A stretch of DNA of 29,530 bases, taken from the IMG/VR virus record IMGVR_UViG_3300027972_000044, positions 1 through 29,530 of that record; one strand, given 5' to 3'. The position numbers and the translations under genes were made by a program. Under the pieces are notes generated by a model. It was given only the letters and a program-made list of their open reading frames with translations. It did no database searches and was not told the origin of the DNA. This DNA is from a virus. Shown one piece after another: positions 10,886 through 28,958 of this stretch (positions are counted from its first letter, which is position 1; each line of letters starts with the position of its first letter).

Positions 10886-10917
10886 CAAAGTTATATACTA
10901 ATATCGACAAATGCAAA
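10886..10917 (-). promoter_or_regulatory. Bacteroidota-type promoter, first of the left arm
   Basis: Minus strand: TTTG at 10917-10914, exactly 20 nt, then TAACTTTG at 10893-10886. Predicted start of transcription near 10879. Confidence 0.7.
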
Positions 10918-10973
10918 TTTTTAACTACTTATTTTTAACCCCGGGTACATTTTCTTAAAATTGTTGTATCCCC

Positions 10974-11022
10974 TATCGAGTGAGTATTTATTATGAATTA
11001 TAAGATGATTATCGAGTGAGTA
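10974..11022. repeat. 13-nt direct repeat, candidate operator pair
   Basis: TATCGAGTGAGTA occurs at 10974-10986 and again at 11010-11022, with starts 36 nt apart. The pair lies between the divergent arms, upstream of the first right-arm gene and about 60 nt from the left-arm promoter. It could bind a repressor or activator that sets the order of arm expression. No bound protein can be named. Confidence 0.55.
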
Positions 11023-11060
11023 AGTCATATCCACAAACACCCCGCCCACTTTCGTGTGTT

Positions 11061-11072
11061 GGGCATATGCCC
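11061..11072. promoter_or_regulatory. 12-bp perfect palindrome upstream of the first right-arm gene
   Basis: GGGCATATGCCC is a perfect palindrome 40 nt before the ATG at 11112, within an unusually GC-rich stretch. GCCCA at 11044-11048 can also pair with TGGGC at 11060-11064. It may be a dimeric operator or a 5' untranslated hairpin. I find no TAnnTTTG element here, so the right-arm start promoter remains unassigned. Confidence 0.45.
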
Positions 11073-11111
11073 CGGTTGTTTCACTAATGTTTTATTAAAA
11101 ATTTTCATACT

Positions 11112-11378
11112 ATGAAAACTTTGAGAAATCGCTATGCGATTGGTCGTGTCAGAATTGACGGCGTTAGGATGACTGGCACTAAAAGTGCAGTCGTCGATTA
11201 TACTGAGCTCACACCTGACGGTGATGATCAGAACTCTGGCACTGCCATGTGTTTTGACGTCGACGCTGTTGAGCTTGACGACGATGATTGCCTGGCTGGT
11301 AACAGCAGACTCTCCGCAAGCGGTGAGTTTATTGTACAGTCGAGAGCAATCGACCGTACAGGATTAGGACGTAAATAA
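11112..11378 (+). CDS. Acidic GC-rich hypothetical protein, first gene of the right arm
   Basis: 88 residues. The N-terminus is basic (MKTLRNRYAIGRVRIDGVR). The middle is acidic (ELTPDGDDQNSG, DVDAVELDDDDCLAGN). Codons use much more G and C than any neighbour, which suggests recent transfer or selection for high expression. It follows the repeat/palindrome region directly, so it is probably one of the first genes expressed. Its stop codon lies in the loop/stem of a terminator hairpin. A host-takeover protein or nucleic-acid mimic is possible, but nothing in the sequence proves it. Confidence 0.6.
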   Translation: MKTLRNRYAIGRVRIDGVRMTGTKSAVVDYTELTPDGDDQNSGTAMCFDVDAVELDDDDCLAGNSRLSASGEFIVQSRAIDRTGLGRK

Positions 11379-11393
11379 CGTCCTTTTCCTTTT
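11366..11393 (+). terminator. Terminator-like hairpin overlapping a stop codon
   Basis: AGGACGT at 11366-11372, loop AAATA, ACGTCCT at 11378-11384, then TTTCCTTTT. The stop codon TAA of the 88-residue gene spans loop and stem. It is the first of several similar elements at the start of the right arm. Confidence 0.65.
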
Positions 11394-11487
11394 AACTGAT
11401 GGAATGCTTTGATATTCATCAAATACCAAGTATCAATGATCAGTTATCGAGAGCCCTGATGGGGCTTTCTTGAAATTAATTTTTTTC
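11394..11487 (+). terminator. Two-hairpin element ending in a terminator-like stem
   Basis: A first hairpin pairs AACTGAT (11394-11400) with ATCAGTT (11439-11445) around a nested TTTGAT-attc-ATCAAA. A second pairs GAGAGCCC (11449-11456) with GGGCTTTC (11462-11469), followed after a short gap by a run of seven T. The pair may be a small RNA with its own terminator or an attenuator. Confidence 0.5.
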
Positions 11488-11880
11488 TACATATGAAGAA
11501 GGATTTTGACTGGGCGGGGCTCGTTATTTATTGTAATTAATTGATTTAGTGTTCATTAAGTCGAGCTCCAACCTTTTAAACCTTTTTAATCATCATTGTT
11601 TTAGTTCCAGATTTAATAATATAGCTTAAATTAAGTCAAGGTTGTTAAGCCATATTTCACTAAACTAACCTGTCAAAAATGTTAAATGTTAAATTCTACG
11701 CATCGCACACTTCGTAGTAGTCCTTATGACTAAAAGTGCAAAGCCTTATACTAGTTAAACGGGCTAGAAGAATACTAGTTTTGCCTGTTTTATAATTTAT
11801 AGTACTAACCTTTTAAAAAGCTTATTACAATTATGAAACTCATGTAGGAGGGAGTCCTGCCAATTATAATTAACGGATAA

Positions 11881-11929
11881 AAATGCCTTGCCATGATCTA
11901 GAAGGACTAGGGAGCGAGGCATTTCTTTT
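11881..11929 (+). terminator. Strong hairpin with T-rich tail
   Basis: AAATGCCTTGC (11881-11891) pairs with GCGAGGCATTT (11914-11924) over 11 bp with one G-U pair. The 22-nt loop contains a nested CTAG-aagga-CTAG. The tail is TTTCTTTT. It may end a small RNA transcribed from the non-coding stretch upstream. Confidence 0.6.
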
Positions 11930-11984
11930 AACTCGATTATTTATAAATAACTATATATAACTTTTACCATTTCCTTTCTGACTC

Positions 11985-12053
11985 AAGCCCTCATCTACCC
12001 TTCATTTTCTTGGATTTAATTAACATTATCTCTTAGATGGGGGCTTTTCTTTT
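11985..12053 (+). terminator. 13-bp hairpin with T-rich tail
   Basis: AAGCCCTCATCTA (11985-11997) pairs with TAGATGGGGGCTT (12034-12046), 13 bp with one G-U pair and a 36-nt AT-rich loop, followed by TTCTTTT. The tail resembles the hairpin at 11881. The long loop is unusual for a plain terminator. Confidence 0.6.
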
Positions 12054-12077
12054 GTTAATTATTAACCAATATATTTG
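12046..12077 (+). promoter_or_regulatory. Weak candidate promoter
   Basis: TATATTTGC at 12070-12078 matches TAnnTTTG. Exactly 20 nt upstream is TTTC, one base from the -33 consensus. It would start a transcript near 12084, leading into the small genes from 12211. Confidence 0.35.
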
Positions 12078-12210
12078 CCTATGCTACATTCTTACTCCAC
12101 CAATACTAATTGAGCTATGAGTAAGTTGAAAACTAGCTATTATCGTCTGTTTTGTATGGTATTAGCACTAATGATCTTAGACAAACAAACCAAATTAACT
12201 AAATCAATCA

Positions 12211-12282
12211 ATGAAAGAATTAATTGCTTATTTAGGAGTAGTCATGACTCAGGAAGATTATCTTGAGTATGACAAAGATTAA
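12211..12282 (+). CDS. Possible very small gene
   Basis: 23 residues, MKELIAYLGVVMTQEDYLEY and a short end. The ATG follows an A-rich stretch and the next small gene begins 12 nt after the stop. Length and lack of a family make it uncertain. Confidence 0.3.
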   Translation: MKELIAYLGVVMTQEDYLEYDKD

Positions 12283-12294
12283 AACTGTAAAGCT

Positions 12295-12396
12295 ATGTGG
12301 TATTATCCTACCTTTAAAGAACATCTTATTTCAATAATCAAAGTATTGTTGATAATAGGAGCAATTGTCTGGATAACTATAAAAACAACTTGTTAA
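12295..12396 (+). CDS. Small membrane peptide
   Basis: 33 residues. A single hydrophobic segment covers residues 11-29 (LISIIKVLLIIGAIVWITI), preceded by WYYPTFKEH. It lies 21 nt before the next gene. The hydrophobic pattern supports it as real. Function unknown. Confidence 0.5.
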   Translation: MWYYPTFKEHLISIIKVLLIIGAIVWITIKTTC

Positions 12397-12417
12397 CCTT
12401 CTAATAATATAGCTAAA

Positions 12418-12627
12418 ATGGCAATTTTAAGAAGTAAAAGACTTCTCTTAACATGTAAATGTTGGTTAGGAGAAGTTATAACAGATGTTCCTGAATATGG
12501 TTATCTGAAAGCCCTTGGCTTTAAGAAGTATGTTCCCAAAATAAGAGTTTACGTTACTGAGACTTTTAGTTTCAAGTATGTAGATAATGTTGGTAAAGAC
12601 ATAATGATTAATGTTTTTCAAAACTAG
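12418..12627 (+). CDS. Hypothetical protein
   Basis: 69 residues, basic, with a CxC (TCKCWLGE) near residues 13-17 and alternating hydrophobics later (KIRVYVTETFSFKYV). Not recognised. It is in line with the small genes on each side. Confidence 0.55.
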   Translation: MAILRSKRLLLTCKCWLGEVITDVPEYGYLKALGFKKYVPKIRVYVTETFSFKYVDNVGKDIMINVFQN

Positions 12628-12632
12628 TTGTT

Positions 12633-12767
12633 ATGAAATTTAATGATATCAAACCAGAAAAAAAGAAGAAAAGGATATTAGGCAAGAATTATATTCCATC
12701 AGATGTGATTATAAGAATGCCTAAGAATTCGAGGGATACAAACTTTCTTAAGGATCTCTGTAAATAA
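12633..12767 (+). CDS. Small basic hypothetical protein
   Basis: 44 residues, MKFNDIKPEKKKKRILGKNY followed by IPSDVIIRMPKNSRDTNFLKD and LCK. Very basic, so it may bind nucleic acid. It begins 5 nt after the preceding stop and ends 45 nt before a terminator. Confidence 0.5.
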   Translation: MKFNDIKPEKKKKRILGKNYIPSDVIIRMPKNSRDTNFLKDLCK

Positions 12768-12812
12768 TGGTTATTATCGTGACATAATAATAACATAGTT
12801 TTTAGTTGGTAT

Positions 12813-12841
12813 GGAGGATATGTAACAGTATCCTCCTTTTT
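12813..12841 (+). terminator. Rho-independent terminator
   Basis: GGAGGATA (12813-12820), loop of 8 nt, TATCCTCC (12829-12836), then TTTTT. Perfect 8-bp stem. It closes the group of small early genes. Confidence 0.9.
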
Positions 12842-12854
12842 AATAACTTAATTA

Positions 12855-12971
12855 TGAAAGAAACTAAGAGCTACTTCTATTTGTAGACATGTAAATGCAC
12901 AAGTCAAAATGGAAAACATTGAATTGCAATATGATCGTATTGCAGAACGTGAATCAAGAATCAACAAGTAA
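12855..12971 (+). other. Possible decayed small gene
   Basis: An ATG at 12855 opens a 10-codon frame ending in TAG, followed in the same frame by TCKCTSQNGKH. The TCKC echoes TCKCW in the gene at 12418, and both share ACATGTAAATG at the DNA level. A second frame from 12909 reads MENIELQYDRIAERESRINK. Together they look like one small gene broken by a stop and a shift, but short frames arise easily by chance. Confidence 0.25.
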
Positions 12972-13000
12972 TAAATATATTTACATTAAAATTAATTAAG

Positions 13001-14683
13001 ATGTTCAAAGCAAAAATCAAACCCCAAAAACAGACATCTGAATATTCTGTAGTTAAAACTCAGATAGGTGGATTCATAAAAGCAGGTCTTAAAGGATCTG
13101 CTGAAACAAAATCAGGCAATCTTGCAAAGAAATATGCTCATCTTGATGATCCTTTTCTTACTCAGTTTGGATCTGTTGGACAGTATAAACAGAAAAGATC
13201 TTTTGAGGAGATAGCAAACGATTGTGAATCTCTCTGGTCAAAAGACAAAAGACTTTCAATAGTCTTTATGGTTTATCTGAGAATAATAACAAGAATTGTT
13301 GTATTCTTTGATGGCACATCAACCAGAGTAGCTCAGAAAGGTGCAGAACTGAAACATGAGTCTATCATGAGGATGATCTGGCTCTTTGTTAAAAACGAAA
13401 GTTCTTTTTGGAAGAATATAGGTCTCTTTATATCTGTTGGATCTTGGAAAGATATCTTTACCATGCTTCAGTATGATTATATGTATCATGGTTGGAAAGA
13501 CAGAGTTCTTAATTGGGATAAAATAACCAATTTTATTCTTACAGGATTAGAGAATTCAAACACTGTTAATCTTGTCAAGAAATATCTTCCTCAGTTAAAA
13601 GCAAGATCTAAATGTACCACTATTGAATCAGAAGCTGATACTTATATAGCTAAGTTTATATGCCATAAAATATTTGGAGAAAATGAATCTCTGAAGATGG
13701 CTAGTTATAAAAAGTATAGAAAGATGAAATCTTCCGGTACAGCTCATTCCTGGCAACAGTTGATCAGCCAAAAAAAATTTGATCGTATTGATTTCAGTAA
13801 GATACATGGTAGAGCCTTATCTCTTCTTGTAAGAAGTAAGTTTCTTAAAAATCATGATCTTGTTGATAAGTATAATGCTTGGATTGGTGATCCTGAAACA
13901 AAAGATGTTAAATATACTGGATTTGTTCATGATTTATTTCAGACTTGTGAAAAATACAGAACTCTTGTTTCTATACCTGTACAAGAACAAACCACTATAA
14001 TTAAGCAATTTGATACTCTTGTTAAAAAAGCAGGAGAAAAGCCTATGACTAAGTATATTGTAGTCAGGGATACTAGTGGTTCAATGCGTAGTCAAGCCAA
14101 AGGATGTAATATGTCCAGTGGTAATATTGCCAAGGCTCTTTCATTATACTTTAGTCAATTTCTAACAGGAGCTTTCTCTAATGCCTGGATAGAATTTAGT
14201 CGTGAAGCTTTAATGCATTACTGGTCTGGAAATACTATTCTTGAAAAATGGTATAATGATAGTTCTAATTATGTAGGTAATACTGATTTTCTAAGTGTTA
14301 TACATCTTTTTATAAAGATAAAAGCACAAGGAATATCAGAAAGTGAATTTCCAGAAGGTATACTTTGTATATCTGATGGTGAATTTGACGGAGCATCATT
14401 AGCAGATACAAATGTAGAATACGCATTAAAACTACTTCGCAATGCTGGTTTTTCTGAAGAATATGTAAGAAATTTTGTTATTGTTCTTTGGAATATACCT
14501 AATATATTTTATTGGGATTCTACTACTAAATTTGAAACATATGAAGGATCATATCCTAATGTGTTTTATTTTGGTGGATACAATGCCAGTGTAATATCTT
14601 TTCTTTCGGATAAAGTAAAAACCACAAAAGAATTATTTGATTCAGTAATGGATCAGGAAGTTCTTAATAGAGTGGAATTGTAA
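13001..14683 (+). CDS. Ro60-like RNA-binding protein (TROVE/DUF2828-like with VWA domain)
   Basis: 560 residues, close to Ro60 in length. Residues 1-340 are helical and basic, with blocks such as DDPFLTQFGSVGQY, SKDKRLSIVFMVYLRI and SVGSWKDIFTMLQY, which fit the TROVE/DUF2828 helical-repeat ring that in Ro proteins binds misfolded RNA ends and Y RNA. Residues 350-550 form a von Willebrand A domain with a complete MIDAS: D357-T-S359-G-S361 (in VVRDTSGSMRS), T428 (GNTDF) and D459 (CISDGEFD). In bacteria Ro proteins act with a Y RNA and nucleases in RNA quality control. Here the gene is followed directly by about 970 nt of apparent structured RNA, matching the usual Ro/Y-RNA neighbourhood. Fold family is fairly sure; Ro function is inferred. 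DUF2828 proteins of unknown role are the alternative. Confidence 0.8.
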   Translation: MFKAKIKPQKQTSEYSVVKTQIGGFIKAGLKGSAETKSGNLAKKYAHLDDPFLTQFGSVGQYKQKRSFEEIANDCESLWSKDKRLSIVFMVYLRIITRIVVFFDGTSTRVAQKGAELKHESIMRMIWLFVKNESSFWKNIGLFISVGSWKDIFTMLQYDYMYHGWKDRVLNWDKITNFILTGLENSNTVNLVKKYLPQLKARSKCTTIESEADTYIAKFICHKIFGENESLKMASYKKYRKMKSSGTAHSWQQLISQKKFDRIDFSKIHGRALSLLVRSKFLKNHDLVDKYNAWIGDPETKDVKYTGFVHDLFQTCEKYRTLVSIPVQEQTTIIKQFDTLVKKAGEKPMTKYIVVRDTSGSMRSQAKGCNMSSGNIAKALSLYFSQFLTGAFSNAWIEFSREALMHYWSGNTILEKWYNDSSNYVGNTDFLSVIHLFIKIKAQGISESEFPEGILCISDGEFDGASLADTNVEYALKLLRNAGFSEEYVRNFVIVLWNIPNIFYWDSTTKFETYEGSYPNVFYFGGYNASVISFLSDKVKTTKELFDSVMDQEVLNRVEL

Positions 14684-14687
14684 TTAT

Positions 14688-14820
14688 AAAAGTAAACTCT
14701 CTCTGAAACTCACATAATTCTCACATCAGTAGTGAATCCTATAAAAGAAGAACCCTATGATACTAGTTTGGGTAGTGAGAAAATATCTAGGATTATATAC
14801 TAGTGAGAGTTTACTTTTTT
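14688..14820 (+). ncRNA. End-paired structured RNA, candidate Y-RNA-like partner
   Basis: AAAAGTAAACTCTC (14688-14701) pairs perfectly over 14 bp with GAGAGTTTACTTTT (14805-14818), enclosing 103 nt and ending in T residues. Inside, TTCTCAC (14718-14724) pairs with GTGAGAA (14775-14781), ACCC (14752-14755) with GGGT (14770-14773), and AATCCTA (14735-14741) with TAGGATT (14788-14794). The last pairing crosses the first inner one, giving a possible pseudoknot. A closed end helix, a large internal loop and a U-rich 3' end about 130 nt along are the layout of Y RNAs, and the element begins 5 nt after the Ro-like gene. I do not see the conserved Ro-binding helix of animal Y RNAs or a clear tRNA-like module. 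The outer stem and T-tract could also serve as terminator of the Ro-like gene. Confidence 0.6.
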
Positions 14821-14824
14821 AATT

Positions 14825-15006
14825 TAATCTTCTTGCTGAAGACAAACAGTAAGCTTAAAGGAGCTGCCCAAAAACGCTCATGGGTTCTTATAGTCATGCC
14901 AAGATGACGTTGTTTGTTGTAAGATAATAAATTTAGCCAGCCTTTGGCGATGGAACAGGCATAAAACACCGCCATTTATTCCGCTTGGAAACGGACAGGA
15001 AGATTA
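14825..15006 (+). ncRNA. Second structured RNA, about 180 nt, unknown family
   Basis: TAATCTTC (14825-14832) pairs with GAAGATTA (14999-15006), continued after a bulge by CTG/CAG. Inside are ACAAACA (14842-14848) with TGTTTGT (14911-14917) and hairpin GTCAT-GCCAAG-ATGAC (14893-14908). GAGC/GCTC and GCCCA/TGGGT (14861-14885) interlock and could be alternatives or a compact pseudoknot. GCCA/TGGC lies at 14936-14948 and TCCG/CGGA at 14980-14995. It is clearly GC-richer than its flanks. It resembles no tRNA, tmRNA, RNase P or 6S sequence that I recognise. It directly follows the end-paired RNA, so both may come from one precursor. Confidence 0.5.
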
Positions 15007-15031
15007 TTTTTGATAATTATATATAAATCTT

Positions 15032-15126
15032 AGGATGCAAAAACAGCAAGTTTAAATACTATATGTAAATAAACGATAGCTATGAGTATCTTAATAAGAA
15101 TAATTAGATAATAAAACTTGCATCCT
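15032..15126 (+). ncRNA. Diverged first unit of the hairpin string
   Basis: AGGATGCAA (15032-15040) pairs perfectly with TTGCATCCT (15118-15126). Two bases after the 5' arm comes ACAGCAAG, the same motif and position as in the six regular units downstream. The loop is longer (about 67 nt) and contains a copy of the linker-like TTAATAAG at 15091-15098. A TATTTTTG at 15005-15012 could be a -7 promoter element for the string, but no good -33 element precedes it. Confidence 0.5.
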
Positions 15127-15176
15127 GTTTATATTATTATTATCTTTGTAAAATATTAAAAGAAAATAGCTTAATA

Positions 15177-15584
15177 AGAAGTCATACAGCAAATATAAAA
15201 ATTTCAATATGGGTTTGAAAAACAATCGACTTCTGATAAGAGTAGTTACAGCAAATAACTTACTATAAGATCGCCAAAAATGACCTTTATGTAAAACTAC
15301 TCTGACAAGAATGGTTACAGCAAATAAATATATAACATACAATTTTGGTTTGTAAACGTTAAAGATACCATTCTGATAAGGTTAGATACAGCAAATAATT
15401 AAAAACAATAGCCTTCTAAGCTGTCAAGTTTGATCATTCTAACCTGATAAAGTCTCATACAGCAAATATATTAAGCAATAATCTGATAAATTATCTCGCT
15501 AAATACTGAGACTTGATAAGATTACTAACAGCAAATAATAAAAAATATACTGTAAATATATTCTATAAATAGTAATCTGATAAA
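15177..15584 (+). ncRNA. Tandem string of six covarying hairpins
   Basis: Six units repeat every 59-71 nt. Paired arms are 15177-15183/15228-15234, 15239-15247/15295-15303, 15308-15315/15367-15374, 15379-15386/15438-15445, 15450-15457/15507-15514 and 15519-15526/15571-15578. Stems are 7-9 bp, perfect, and different in sequence in every unit. Consecutive hairpins are separated by exactly four bases, GATA (once GACA), giving the apparent linker TGATAAG. Each 5' arm is followed within 0-2 nt by ACAGCAAATA, and the remaining loop of 32-39 nt is AT-rich and not conserved. Conserved single-stranded motifs with compensating stems argue for selected RNA (or single-stranded DNA) structure. Not a CRISPR array: the repeat is too short and interrupted by the variable arm. 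Function unknown; position suggests a link with the Ro-like protein. Confidence 0.75.
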
Positions 15585-26230: not shown

Positions 26231-26391
26231 CAGAAGAAGAAATTAAAAACGCTATAGTAGAATTATTATATGATTTACATACAAGAAATCTACTTAATGA
26301 ATATATTGTAAACAGTATATCTATTAATTTTAAAATAGATGCTGAACAATTATGCTCTATTAATGGTATAACATATAATCTAGAATCATGA
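26227..26391 (+). CDS. Small hypothetical protein
   Basis: 54 residues (MTEEEIKNAIVELLYDLHTR at the start). It overlaps the preceding stop and the next start by 4 nt each (ATGA), which supports translation. A likely helical N-terminus is followed by a strand. Unknown. Confidence 0.6.
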   Translation: MTEEEIKNAIVELLYDLHTRNLLNEYIVNSISINFKIDAEQLCSINGITYNLES

Positions 26392-26624
26392 AAAAATTAG
26401 GATTATTTATTTTATTAACTTTAATCTTTTCTTGTGAACCAATAGAAGATTATTGTTGGGATTGCTTACAAGTTAAAACTAACTTGAATGAAAGGATAGT
26501 ACATTATAATCCGTTTACAATGTGTAATATGACACAAGAAGAAATTGATGATTTTGAAAAAACATATACTTATATTAAATGTGGAATATCTAGTGTATTA
26601 TCTTGTGAAAAACAACGAGAATGA
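26388..26624 (+). CDS. Predicted lipoprotein
   Basis: 78 residues. The lipoprotein signal peptide MKKLGLFILLTLIFSC ends in a lipobox (LIFSC) with C16 as the lipidated residue; acidic E-P follows, common for surface-directed Bacteroidota lipoproteins. Several further cysteines (CWDC, CNM, KCG, SCEK) may form disulfides. It could alter the cell surface. It overlaps the next gene by 4 nt. Confidence 0.65.
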   Translation: MKKLGLFILLTLIFSCEPIEDYCWDCLQVKTNLNERIVHYNPFTMCNMTQEEIDDFEKTYTYIKCGISSVLSCEKQRE

Positions 26625-27040
26625 AAAAAGATAAAAAAGTTGAAAAACAAATATTACCTAATAAACTTAAACCAATTGTTAAGTTTAATAATGGTGATGG
26701 TGCTTTATTATGTAATCTTTGTTACATTATTATAAAAACTCCTCTTGATAAAAAAGAGTGGGATAAAAAAACTTCTTTAGTTCTATGTCCTAAATGTATT
26801 AAATATGTAGTAAATAATACAGAAACTAAATATAAAGAAGGATTTTTGCCAAAGGAACATATGAAATTATTATCCAGATTTCCCACTAAGTATATGAATA
26901 TGGATAAATATTGGAATGCATTACATGGTATTACTTTCATGATAACAGATGATGGCGTATTAACGTATCATTGTGATATCATAACAGCTCTTAATTGTAC
27001 TATAGAAAATAGAGACATGTATTTACATGAATGGGATTAA
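26621..27040 (+). CDS. Zinc-ribbon-like hypothetical protein
   Basis: 139 residues. Basic N-terminus (MKKDKKVEKQILPNKLK), then CNLC and CPKC about 30 residues apart as a zinc ribbon. The C-terminal half has aromatic residues (MDKYWNALHGITFMI). Unknown function. Confidence 0.6.
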   Translation: MKKDKKVEKQILPNKLKPIVKFNNGDGALLCNLCYIIIKTPLDKKEWDKKTSLVLCPKCIKYVVNNTETKYKEGFLPKEHMKLLSRFPTKYMNMDKYWNALHGITFMITDDGVLTYHCDIITALNCTIENRDMYLHEWD

Positions 27041-27065: not shown

Positions 27066-27776
27066 ATGACAAGAAAACCAATAATAGGAATACCCGGATG
27101 GAAAGTTGGAGATAATAGTTTTGGTGTTACTTTACCATATATGGAATTTTTTGAACAATATGGAATAGTTAAAGTATTAACTTTAACAGAAGAAGTAGAC
27201 AATTCTATAGATCTTTTAGTAATACCCGGAGGATCTGATATAGATCCCTTAAGATATGGAGCAAAACCTAATTTTAATAATACACGACCAGATCCTATTA
27301 AAGAATATTTTGATGTAAAAATACTTCCTCAATATATTAAAGCTAATGTTCCTATCTTTGGAATATGTAGAGGCATTCAGACTATTGCTGTTTTGTTTGG
27401 TGGTGTTTTAATACAACATTTATATAATCATGAGTCTAATGATTCTTTAGACAGAGCTAAAGCAGTTCATAATATGATTGTTACTAATCATAAATTAGAA
27501 TCGGAATTAGTTAACTTTAAGAACGGTTATAATAAGGGAAAAGGAATCAAAGTAAATTCTCTACATCATCAATGTGTATCTAGTAAAAATCTTCCAGATT
27601 GTTTAGAAGTAATAGCTACTTATGTAGGTAAATCTAATTATGTTTCTATAGAAGCAATAAAACATTCTTCACTTCCTATAATGGCTGTTCAATATCATCC
27701 AGAAGAAATGGGATTTGATGTATTAAGTGATTACATGATTCAAAGTTTAATATCTAAAAGTAAAAATTATGCATAA
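27066..27776 (+). CDS. Class I glutamine amidotransferase-like peptidase (C26, gamma-glutamyl hydrolase type)
   Basis: 236 residues. Family marks: IPGGSDIDPLRYG, nucleophile C101 in FGICRGIQ, and H211 and E213 in VQYHPEE. PuuD-type enzymes hydrolyse gamma-glutamyl bonds. It overlaps the next gene by 8 nt, and the ATP-grasp gene follows, so the three form one unit. In such predicted amidoligase systems the peptidase is thought to trim or remove the added amino acids. Direct substrate unknown. Confidence 0.85.
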   Translation: MTRKPIIGIPGWKVGDNSFGVTLPYMEFFEQYGIVKVLTLTEEVDNSIDLLVIPGGSDIDPLRYGAKPNFNNTRPDPIKEYFDVKILPQYIKANVPIFGICRGIQTIAVLFGGVLIQHLYNHESNDSLDRAKAVHNMIVTNHKLESELVNFKNGYNKGKGIKVNSLHHQCVSSKNLPDCLEVIATYVGKSNYVSIEAIKHSSLPIMAVQYHPEEMGFDVLSDYMIQSLISKSKNYA

Positions 27777-28161
27777 AGTATTTGTATATGGATCTTTATT
27801 AAAAGGATTAGGAAATCATAGATTACTCGCTGATTCTACATTCTTAGGAGAAGATAATACTAAGCCTGAATTTCTTATGGTAGATCTTGGATGGTTTCCT
27901 GGTATAATAGAAGACATTGATGGTGTTTCTATTAAAGGAGAAGTTTATGAAGTATCTAATGATACTCTAAGTTGGTTAGATTCTTTAGAAGGATATAGAC
28001 CGTCTAGCCCTTCTTTTGGTTTATATAATCGTAAACAAATTGATACTAAATTTGGTAAAGCTTTAGTTTATATTTATAATCATTCAGGAAAAGTATTTAC
28101 TTCTGATAAATTAGTTAAAGACGGAGATTGGAGATCTCACTATCAAAATAAAAAAAGATGA
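27769..28161 (+). CDS. Gamma-glutamylcyclotransferase-like protein (AIG2 family)
   Basis: 130 residues. The start VFVYGSLLKGLGNHRLL is the family's YGSL substrate loop, and IKGEVYEVSNDTLSWLDSLEGY carries the conserved catalytic glutamate before GY. The fold releases 5-oxoproline from gamma-glutamyl amines. It overlaps both neighbours (8 nt and 4 nt). Together with the amidotransferase and ATP-grasp genes it suggests making and clearing of gamma-glutamyl-type linkages. Confidence 0.85.
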   Translation: MHKVFVYGSLLKGLGNHRLLADSTFLGEDNTKPEFLMVDLGWFPGIIEDIDGVSIKGEVYEVSNDTLSWLDSLEGYRPSSPSFGLYNRKQIDTKFGKALVYIYNHSGKVFTSDKLVKDGDWRSHYQNKKR

Positions 28162-28958
28162 AAAAATTTGTCCAGATAAGAACAAAAAATTCAACAGCTA
28201 GACCTCTTCAAAGGTCTATTTTATTTGATGATTGGGCTATTGTAAGACTAGGTTCTCGTACTCCTACTGAAAATTGTTCCAGAAAACCTAGGAATTTTAT
28301 AGAAGTAAATACTATAGACGCTATTGAAAATAGTAGATCTAAGCTGAGAATGAAATCTTGTTTTTCTAAGTTAAAAGTTCCTCAAGCTGATTGGTGGCGA
28401 GTAGGAAGTATTCAAAATACAAATACTATGCCTTATCCGTTAGTGTTAAAAAGAGTTTTTGGATTCCAAGGTAGAGGAATGAGATTAATTAATACAAAAG
28501 AAGAACTTAATGATTGGTTCGATGCTAACGGTTCTGAAGAAGGTTGGTATTTTGAAAGATTTTATAATTATGCTCGTGAATATCGTCTTCATGTATCTAT
28601 TGCTACTGGAGTATTTTTAAGTTGGCGTAAACTCAGAACTAAAGAAGCTACTAACAGATGGTTTTTTAATTCTACTAATTCTAATTGGGTAGGAGAAGAT
28701 CATAATCTTTTTGATAAACCTAAATGTTGGAAAGATATGGAAAAAGCAGCTGTAGATTCTCTTAAAGCTGTGGGACTTGATATAGGAGCTGTTGATATAA
28801 GAGTTCAATCTAATACACAAGAAAATCCTAAATTTATTGTTTGTGAAATTAATAGTGCTCCTGCTTTAGGAGAATTAGGGATTGAAAAATATAAAGAAGA
28901 AATTTTAAAAATATTACAAAATAAAAAACAAAATGATAGATATAAAACTTCTTTCTAA
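28158..28958 (+). CDS. ATP-grasp ligase
   Basis: 266 residues. Motifs in order: RLGSRTPT near residue 32, LVLKRVFGFQGRGMRL (ATP-binding lysine and glycine-rich loop), YFERFYNYAREYRLHVS, GAVDIRVQ, and CEINSAPALGELG with the metal-binding E-x-N. Family members join a carboxylate to an amine using ATP. In the three-gene unit it is the probable synthetic step, attaching an amino acid to a protein or small molecule. Substrate unknown. Confidence 0.85.
   Translation: MKKFVQIRTKNSTARPLQRSILFDDWAIVRLGSRTPTENCSRKPRNFIEVNTIDAIENSRSKLRMKSCFSKLKVPQADWWRVGSIQNTNTMPYPLVLKRVFGFQGRGMRLINTKEELNDWFDANGSEEGWYFERFYNYAREYRLHVSIATGVFLSWRKLRTKEATNRWFFNSTNSNWVGEDHNLFDKPKCWKDMEKAAVDSLKAVGLDIGAVDIRVQSNTQENPKFIVCEINSAPALGELGIEKYKEEILKILQNKKQNDRYKTSF

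What the first reader, a model, noticed from the sequence alone, without database searches (positions are those of the whole stretch)
15177..15584. String of six hairpins with covarying stems, GAYA linkers and a fixed ACAGCAAATA motif
Seen: six stems of 7-9 bp, each perfect and each different in sequence, with exactly four bases (GATA or GACA) between consecutive hairpins and ACAGCAAATA within two bases of every 5' arm. The loops vary. Within one molecule this amounts to repeated compensatory change, which chance does not give six times in a row. I know of no named RNA family or repeat with this form. Inference: a phage RNA that is processed at the linkers, or a multi-site platform that binds a protein at ACAGCAAATA, or guides carried in the variable 32-39-nt loops. 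Since the arms would also form cruciforms or hairpins in single-stranded DNA, an origin or packaging role is possible.
Basis: partly seen in the sequence, partly recalled or inferred. Interest (0 to 1): 0.95.

Follow-up and report, generated by a model that had tools for sequence, protein, structure and literature searches.

The report
Phage Ro60-linked array of Y-RNA-like hairpins
The six hairpins are real and belong to a widespread but apparently undescribed family of small phage RNAs, encoded in tandem beside a gene for a Ro60-like RNA-binding protein, whose shared stem and ACAGCAA motif most likely dock on that protein and whose loops often imitate parts of transfer RNAs.

Summary
Observation confirmed. 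Six units (15177-15582) share one architecture: AG/AA start, 9-nt arm, ACAGCAAATA, variable loop, complementary arm, then GATA/GACA. They follow a 560-aa gene (13001-14683) whose AlphaFold model matches Ro60 over its length (Z 17.1). The same units lie near Ro60-like genes in most relatives examined: 145 on the Ro-sense strand against 2 antisense, and in Listeria, Enterococcus and Bacillus phages whose Ro proteins are only 22-24% identical. Defined without using pairing, 61 of 83 units still have six perfect inner pairs (shuffled mean 1.2). In 17 related loci another copy encloses the Ro start codon, which suggests autoregulation; the window has a degenerate one. Long loops often carry permuted tRNA-like domains as in bacterial Y RNA YrlA; some short loops, including three of the window's six, carry anticodon-arm-like hairpins. 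Best reading: a polycistronic array of Y-RNA-like RNAs bound by a phage Ro60. Guide, origin and packaging readings are not supported. The unit also resembles Dictyostelium Class I RNAs, reported as restricted to dictyostelids, though below Rfam's threshold. Binding, processing and function are untested.

The parts
13001..14683 (+). Gene for a phage Ro60-like protein (560 aa; helical repeats plus vWA domain, DUF7788/DUF2828 type)
   Evidence: DUF7788 E 1.2e-8; phrog_850 'RNA-binding protein' E 3.6e-26; AlphaFold pTM 0.85; ten best structural matches all Ro60/TROVE, 2i91_B Z 17.1 over 434 residues
12999..13039 (+). Degenerate unit enclosing the Ro start codon: AGATGT/ACATCT with AAGCAA in place of ACAGCAA
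   Evidence: Start-codon hairpins across loci: 18 of 19 with AG before ATG have the matching downstream arm, 1 of 19 without. In the window the motif itself is degenerate.
15032..15126 (+). Probable additional unit (AGGATGCAA / TTGCATCCT, ACAGCAAG, long loop, followed by GT)
   Evidence: register 2 nt longer than the others
15177..15234 (+). Unit 1: AGAAGTC / GACTTCT
   Evidence: Rfam RF01414 34.1 bits, below gathering score
15239..15303 (+). Unit 2: AGAGTAGTT / AACTACTCT
15308..15374 (+). Unit 3: AGAATGGT / ACCATTCT
15379..15445 (+). Unit 4: AGGTTAGA / TCTAACCT; inner hairpin ATAGC-CTTCTAA-GCTGT resembles a tRNA-Arg(UCU) anticodon arm
15450..15514 (+). Unit 5: AAGTCTCA / TGAGACTT; inner hairpin ATAAT-CTGATAA-ATTAT resembles a tRNA-Ile(GAU) anticodon arm
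15519..15578 (+). Unit 6: AGATTACTA / TAGTAATCT; inner hairpin with loop CTGTAAA as in tRNA-Tyr(GUA)
14684..15031 (+). Structured non-coding stretch between the Ro gene and the units; identity unresolved
   Evidence: 14684-15170 folds with z -3.35; no convincing counterpart in related loci

Best explanation
The stretch encodes a tandem set of small Y-RNA-like RNAs that serve the Ro60-like protein encoded just upstream. Each unit is a closed hairpin. The outer stem (variable in sequence, closed by A-U and then G-C or A-U) plus the single-stranded ACAGCAA on its 5' side would form the Ro docking site. The region inside is an exchangeable effector. Long effectors are often a circularly permuted tRNA-like domain (T arm, acceptor-like hairpin, D arm) as in YrlA; short ones carry a small hairpin that in about a quarter of cases resembles a tRNA anticodon arm. 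The array would be transcribed as one RNA, with the linkers as probable cleavage points. Ro also appears to bind a copy of the same hairpin placed over its own start codon in many relatives, so that free Ro would shut off its own synthesis until the small RNAs have absorbed it. Shown: the architecture, stem covariation, strand-specific association with Ro-like genes across distant phages, the Ro fold, the start-codon hairpins, and the tRNA-like content of loops. Inferred: Ro binding, cleavage, autoregulation, and the role of the tRNA-like parts.
For: Ro fold: top ten structural matches all Ro60/TROVE, Z 17.1 to 13.7, against about 10 for vWA-only chains. Ro to array: 145 sense versus 2 antisense units in 41 Ro sources (a few overlap or duplicate); permuted 7-mers average 1.9 on both strands. 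Array to Ro: all 8 contigs that came in by DNA pattern and hold at least 2 units also carry a Ro-like gene; 0 of 9 records with only a chance pattern match do. Distant Ro/DUF2828 phages: Listeria P100 3 units, Enterococcus EFDG1 2, Bacillus 2S-4 5, all on the sense strand; a covariance model of short units gives 25 hits at E<=0.5, all sense and all in Ro sources, none in 29 controls. Start-codon hairpin: 18/19 versus 1/19, Fisher P 2e-8, not corrected for phylogeny. YrlA domain inside array units of relatives. T-loop in 37 and D-arm in 17 of 57 long loops, 0 of 84 short ones; where both occur T precedes D in 10 of 10; shuffles 0.2 and 0.8. CUNNNAA hairpins in 19 of 74 short loops, shuffles 0.49, maximum 4.
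Against: No binding, RNA-seq or processing data for this phage. ACAGCAA is not part of the YrlA consensus as printed, so docking here would differ from that of known bacterial Y RNAs. None of the window's six units carries the tRNA-like domain that marks YrlA, and no YrlA match was found there. Salmonella phage Munch has a Ro-like gene but no fixed-register ACAGCAA unit near it; L181, L182 and L184 also lack units. Related phages are not independent samples. Anticodon-like hairpins are found in about a quarter of short units only, so they may be one effector type among several.
Confidence: 0.82

Rival explanations
1. Cis-acting elements only: the hairpins bind Ro while staying part of longer mRNAs (buffering, stabilising or punctuating the transcript) and are never released as small RNAs.
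For: A copy lies within the Ro coding sequence at its start codon; array units abut without room for individual promoters; no terminator-like site was found near the array.
Against: Effector loops in relatives hold tRNA-like domains as in the small RNA YrlA, and the ends match Dictyostelium Class I RNAs, which are separate small RNAs (AAG start, CUGU end; PMC7919456).
Confidence: 0.2
2. A guide array (CRISPR- or TIGR-like) with spacers in the variable loops or arms.
For: Tandem units with constant and variable parts, next to a gene for a probable nucleic-acid-binding protein.
Against: The neighbour has a Ro60 fold rather than a Cas or Nop-domain fold. Variable arms are self-complementary. Loops match the rest of the window no better than shuffles. 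In relatives the loops are enriched for tRNA-like motifs.
Confidence: 0.03
3. DNA elements: hairpins or cruciforms for replication origin, packaging or recombination.
For: Arms could extrude in single-stranded DNA; the array is intergenic.
Against: Nearly strict strand bias relative to the Ro gene (145:2), tRNA-like RNA domains in the loops of relatives, and a copy on the Ro start codon.
Confidence: 0.02

Closest known systems
Bacterial Y RNA YrlA (Rfam RF02553) with Rsr/Ro60
   Same: Encoded beside a Ro60-like gene; 5' and 3' ends form a closing stem; in relatives the loop holds a permuted tRNA-like domain (T arm, acceptor-like hairpin, D arm) that the YrlA model recognises weakly (best E 2.2e-4).
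   Different: Tandem arrays of different units; a distinct ACAGCAA motif beside the stem; many minimal units without the tRNA-like domain, including all six here; a copy over the Ro start codon; all YrlA matches well below gathering score (36.5 bits at best versus 69).
Dictyostelium Class I RNAs (Rfam RF01414)
   Same: AAG start, short stem with compensatory changes, conserved (CC)UUACAGCAA next to the 5' arm, variable inner part, CUGU end, about 60 nt (PMC7919456). Units score up to 39.7 bits against the gathering score of 41.5.
   Different: Phage, not dictyostelid; clustered in arrays; no hit reaches the gathering score; the published partner named is the RRM protein Rnp1A/Cibp, not Ro60; the published search found none outside dictyostelids.
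Putative Y RNAs of Listeria phage CKA15 (PMC12282133)
   Same: Highly transcribed non-coding regions within 2 kb upstream of an Rsr-like gene; three ACAGCAA units lie just upstream of that gene.
   Different: The only published coordinates (26,236-26,727) lie outside these units, so it is not established that the abundant RNAs are these; the passages read here describe no motif or array.
Vertebrate Y RNAs with Ro60
   Same: Small RNAs closed by pairing of the two ends, bound by a ring-shaped Ro60 (from general knowledge).
   Different: No sequence similarity seen; no tandem array in vertebrates as far as I know.

Membership tests
Ro60/Rsr protein family (for the neighbouring gene) | Full-length Ro fold: helical-repeat ring plus vWA domain | tested here: met
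   AlphaFold pTM 0.85; 2i91, 1yvp, 1yvr, 2nvo and 9l5y (Ro60 of Thermus phage phiLo) are among the ten best matches, spanning residues 31-559
Ro60/Rsr protein family (for the neighbouring gene) | TROVE family sequence profile (Pfam) | tested here: not met
   No member of the 28-protein alignment hits a TROVE model at E<=0.01; all hit DUF7788 and 13 hit DUF2828. Hence called Ro60-like.
YrlA (RF02553) | Score at or above the Rfam gathering threshold | tested here: not met
   No match in the window; relatives up to 36.5 of 69 bits
YrlA (RF02553) | Permuted tRNA-like domain in the loop | tested here: not met
   Absent from the six window units; present in many long-loop units of relatives
YrlA / Y RNA | Gene next to a Ro60-like gene | tested here: met
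YrlA / Y RNA | Bound by Ro60 | not testable with these tools
   Needs binding or pull-down data
Dictyostelium Class I RNA (RF01414) | Short covarying stem, UUACAGCAA-type motif at its 5' side, about 60 nt, AAG...CUGU ends | tested here: met
   Architecture matches, with reservations: the 3' end is CTGA in most window units rather than CTGT, and the motif agreement covers ACAGCAA or UUACAGCAA, not all 11 nt
Dictyostelium Class I RNA (RF01414) | Score at or above the Rfam gathering threshold | tested here: not met
   Window best 34.1, relatives best 39.7, threshold 41.5 bits
TIGR array (TIGR-Tas) | Adjacent Tas protein with a Nop domain | tested here: not met
   The two flanking proteins are Ro60-fold and glucosaminidase; other ORFs of the window were only partly scanned

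The most novel reading that the evidence does not exclude
The array is a Ro-displayed set of tRNA-part decoys: short units present anticodon arms with different pseudo-anticodons (in the window CUUCUAA, CUGAUAA, CUGUAAA; in relatives mostly CUUUUAA, the tRNA-Lys loop), long units present T and D arms, and together they absorb host tRNA-targeting nucleases or modification enzymes during infection. Dictyostelium Class I RNAs would be a eukaryotic branch of the same Ro-type RNA design.
Probability: 0.15. Interest if true: 0.95.

Novelty: new variant of a known kind. Interest (0 to 1): 0.85.

Why it matters
It gives a sequence and structure signature for the RNA partners of a large, mostly unannotated set of phage Ro60-like proteins (233 records with a match in one phage collection), so their function can be tested directly. 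It suggests a simple feedback circuit, with the same hairpin on the Ro start codon. The likeness to Class I RNAs offers a concrete candidate partner type (a Ro-like protein) for an abundant dictyostelid RNA class whose mechanism is not settled. Anticodon-arm mimicry, if functional, would be a new phage strategy.

Tried and rejected
TIGR-Tas was my first idea; dropped once the neighbour proved to have a Ro fold. A single-protein search in viral contigs returned nothing; an alignment of three Ro proteins then found 37 loci. The first DNA pattern was too loose and gave mostly lone chance hits, some later used as controls. Loop-to-window complementarity: nothing beyond chance. Folding energy of the array is not exceptional (z -1.44), so it is not used as evidence. 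The idea that the most abundant CKA15 RNA (26,236-26,727) is one of these units was checked and rejected: no ACAGCAA unit there. Sequence search of the PDB with the Ro alignment gave no meaningful match; only fold comparison revealed Ro60. DUF2828 and DUF7788 did not ring in the 14 control genomes, so nothing is claimed about cellular distribution. Key papers on bacterial Y RNAs (Chen 2014, Sim 2020) are not held, so statements on YrlA beyond the Rfam model rest on general knowledge.

Full report
WHAT IS THERE. The six hairpins are as described. Each unit begins AG or AA, has a 9-nt 5' arm, then ACAGCAAATA, a variable loop of 30-39 nt after the motif, a complementary 3' arm, and GATA or GACA before the next unit. 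The motif always starts 9 nt after the first paired base; the apparent 7-9 bp range is how many of the nine positions pair. A likely further unit lies at 15032-15126 with a perfect 9-bp stem but a register 2 nt longer.

THE NEIGHBOUR. The gene directly upstream (13001-14683, same strand) is recognised by sequence only as DUF7788 and as an 'RNA-binding protein' PHROG. Its AlphaFold model (27 sequences, pLDDT 85.9, pTM 0.85) has Ro60/TROVE structures from eukaryotes, Deinococcus and a Thermus phage as its ten best hits (Z 17.1 to 13.7), clearly above vWA-only proteins at about 10. No Pfam TROVE match exists for any relative, so it is Ro60-like by fold and only remotely by sequence.

RELATIVES. 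An alignment-based search found 37 viral loci and one MAG contig with homologues, besides Leptolyngbya phage Lbo-JY46. In these sources fixed-register ACAGCAA hairpins occur 145 times on the Ro-sense strand and twice on the other; 59 permuted 7-mers give 1.9 on average over both strands. A few loci overlap or are duplicates, so 145 is not a count of independent units; 141 distinct units remain in a somewhat larger set. The reverse also holds: the eight contigs that came in by DNA pattern and hold two or more units all carry a Ro-like gene, while none of nine records with a lone pattern match do. Units also occur on the Ro-sense strand beside Ro/DUF2828 genes in Listeria phage P100, Enterococcus phage EFDG1 and Bacillus phage 2S-4, whose proteins are only 22-24% identical to the window's, but not in Salmonella phage Munch. 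A covariance model of 51 short units gave 25 hits at E<=0.5 over 49 sources, every one on the Ro-sense strand of a Ro locus, none in 29 control loci; the window hits and some others are training members, the distant phages are not.

PAIRING. Because the scanner requires pairing, covariation among its hits is partly built in. The clean test defines units by motif and linker only: 61 of 83 then have six perfect pairs at positions 2-7, against 1.2 (maximum 5) with shuffled arms; the antisense strand gives 0 of 9. Stem positions 3 to 7 each use four or more standard pair types; on 51 aligned units seven of nine pairs change on both sides, and sliding the register destroys the signal.

START CODON. 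In many relatives the Ro start codon sits inside a unit: agATGTTTaACAGCAAAcaaaaa...CATCTG. Of 19 loci with AG before the ATG, 18 have the downstream arm; of 19 without, one does (P 2e-8, uncorrected for phylogeny and with a few near-identical loci). The features appear and vanish together although the proteins are mostly about 45-60% identical to the window's, which argues for an RNA element rather than protein constraint alone. The window's copy has the stem (AGATGT/ACATCT) but a degenerate motif. The simplest reading is autoregulation of Ro translation; this is inferred.

LOOP CONTENTS. Loops fall into two classes. Of 57 loops longer than 60 nt, 37 contain a T-loop and 17 a D-arm consensus (shuffled 0.2 and 0.8); in all ten with both, T precedes D, the permuted tRNA order of YrlA. 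The YrlA model itself finds such domains in L128, L146, L130 and L145 below its threshold, and the tRNA model finds tRNA-like cores inside two units. None of 84 short loops has either. Short loops instead tend to hold a small hairpin with a 7-nt loop; CUNNNAA loops, the anticodon-loop pattern, occur in 19 of 74 against 0.49 expected, and 17 of these are identical to anticodon loops of tRNA genes found in the fetched loci. Three window units are of this kind: CTTCTAA, CTGATAA, CTGTAAA.

KNOWN RELATIVES. The unit closely resembles Dictyostelium Class I RNAs: AAG start, covarying stem, UUACAGCAA at its 5' side, CUGU end, about 60 nt (PMC7919456). Rfam scores reach 39.7 against a threshold of 41.5, so it is not filed as a member; homology or convergence is open. 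That paper reports the class as unique to dictyostelids. In Listeria phage CKA15 the Rsr-like protein was detected in purified particles, and three non-coding regions within 2 kb upstream of its gene are among the most transcribed, with Y RNAs proposed as one explanation (PMC12282133). Three ACAGCAA units lie just upstream of that gene, but the only coordinates given belong to another region, so this is consistent rather than proof.

VERDICT. A tandem array of Y-RNA-like RNAs that most likely dock on a phage Ro60. It works like a Y RNA system; it is not a member of YrlA or of the Class I family by the tests run. Ro binding, linker cleavage, autoregulation and the purpose of the tRNA-like parts remain to be shown.

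Noticed in passing
window 14684-15031: Structured non-coding stretch between the Ro gene and the units (14684-15170 z -3.35), with a long stem at the gene's 3' end followed by T's and another stem around 14819-15016; not matched in relatives.
   Followed up: partly
L147 3304-3454; L175 1065-1249: Hatchet ribozymes above Rfam threshold in two of the Ro-carrying phage contigs.
   Followed up: no
L193 2840-3500 (Listeria phage CKA15): Region holding the phage's most abundant RNA; it contains no ACAGCAA unit and is probably a different structured RNA.
   Followed up: partly
window 11112-11378: Small ORF in a GC-rich island (46% GC against about 30% around) inside a long, sparsely coding stretch (about 10889-13000) between the two divergent gene blocks.
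   Followed up: no
window 27066-28958: Cluster of a class-I glutamine amidotransferase/peptidase C26 gene, a likely gamma-glutamylcyclotransferase-like and a likely ATP-grasp gene; the last two judged by eye from the translation only.
   Followed up: no
L149 and L150: Ro-carrying viral contigs with many tRNA genes around the Ro locus (over a dozen each within 14 kb).
   Followed up: no
short units of relatives, e.g. L150 8397, L149 8123; window units 1 and 3: A second group of 7-nt inner loops contains GG (ATTGGAA, ATTGGTA, TTTTGGT, TATGGGT) and does not fit the anticodon pattern well; meaning unknown.
   Followed up: no
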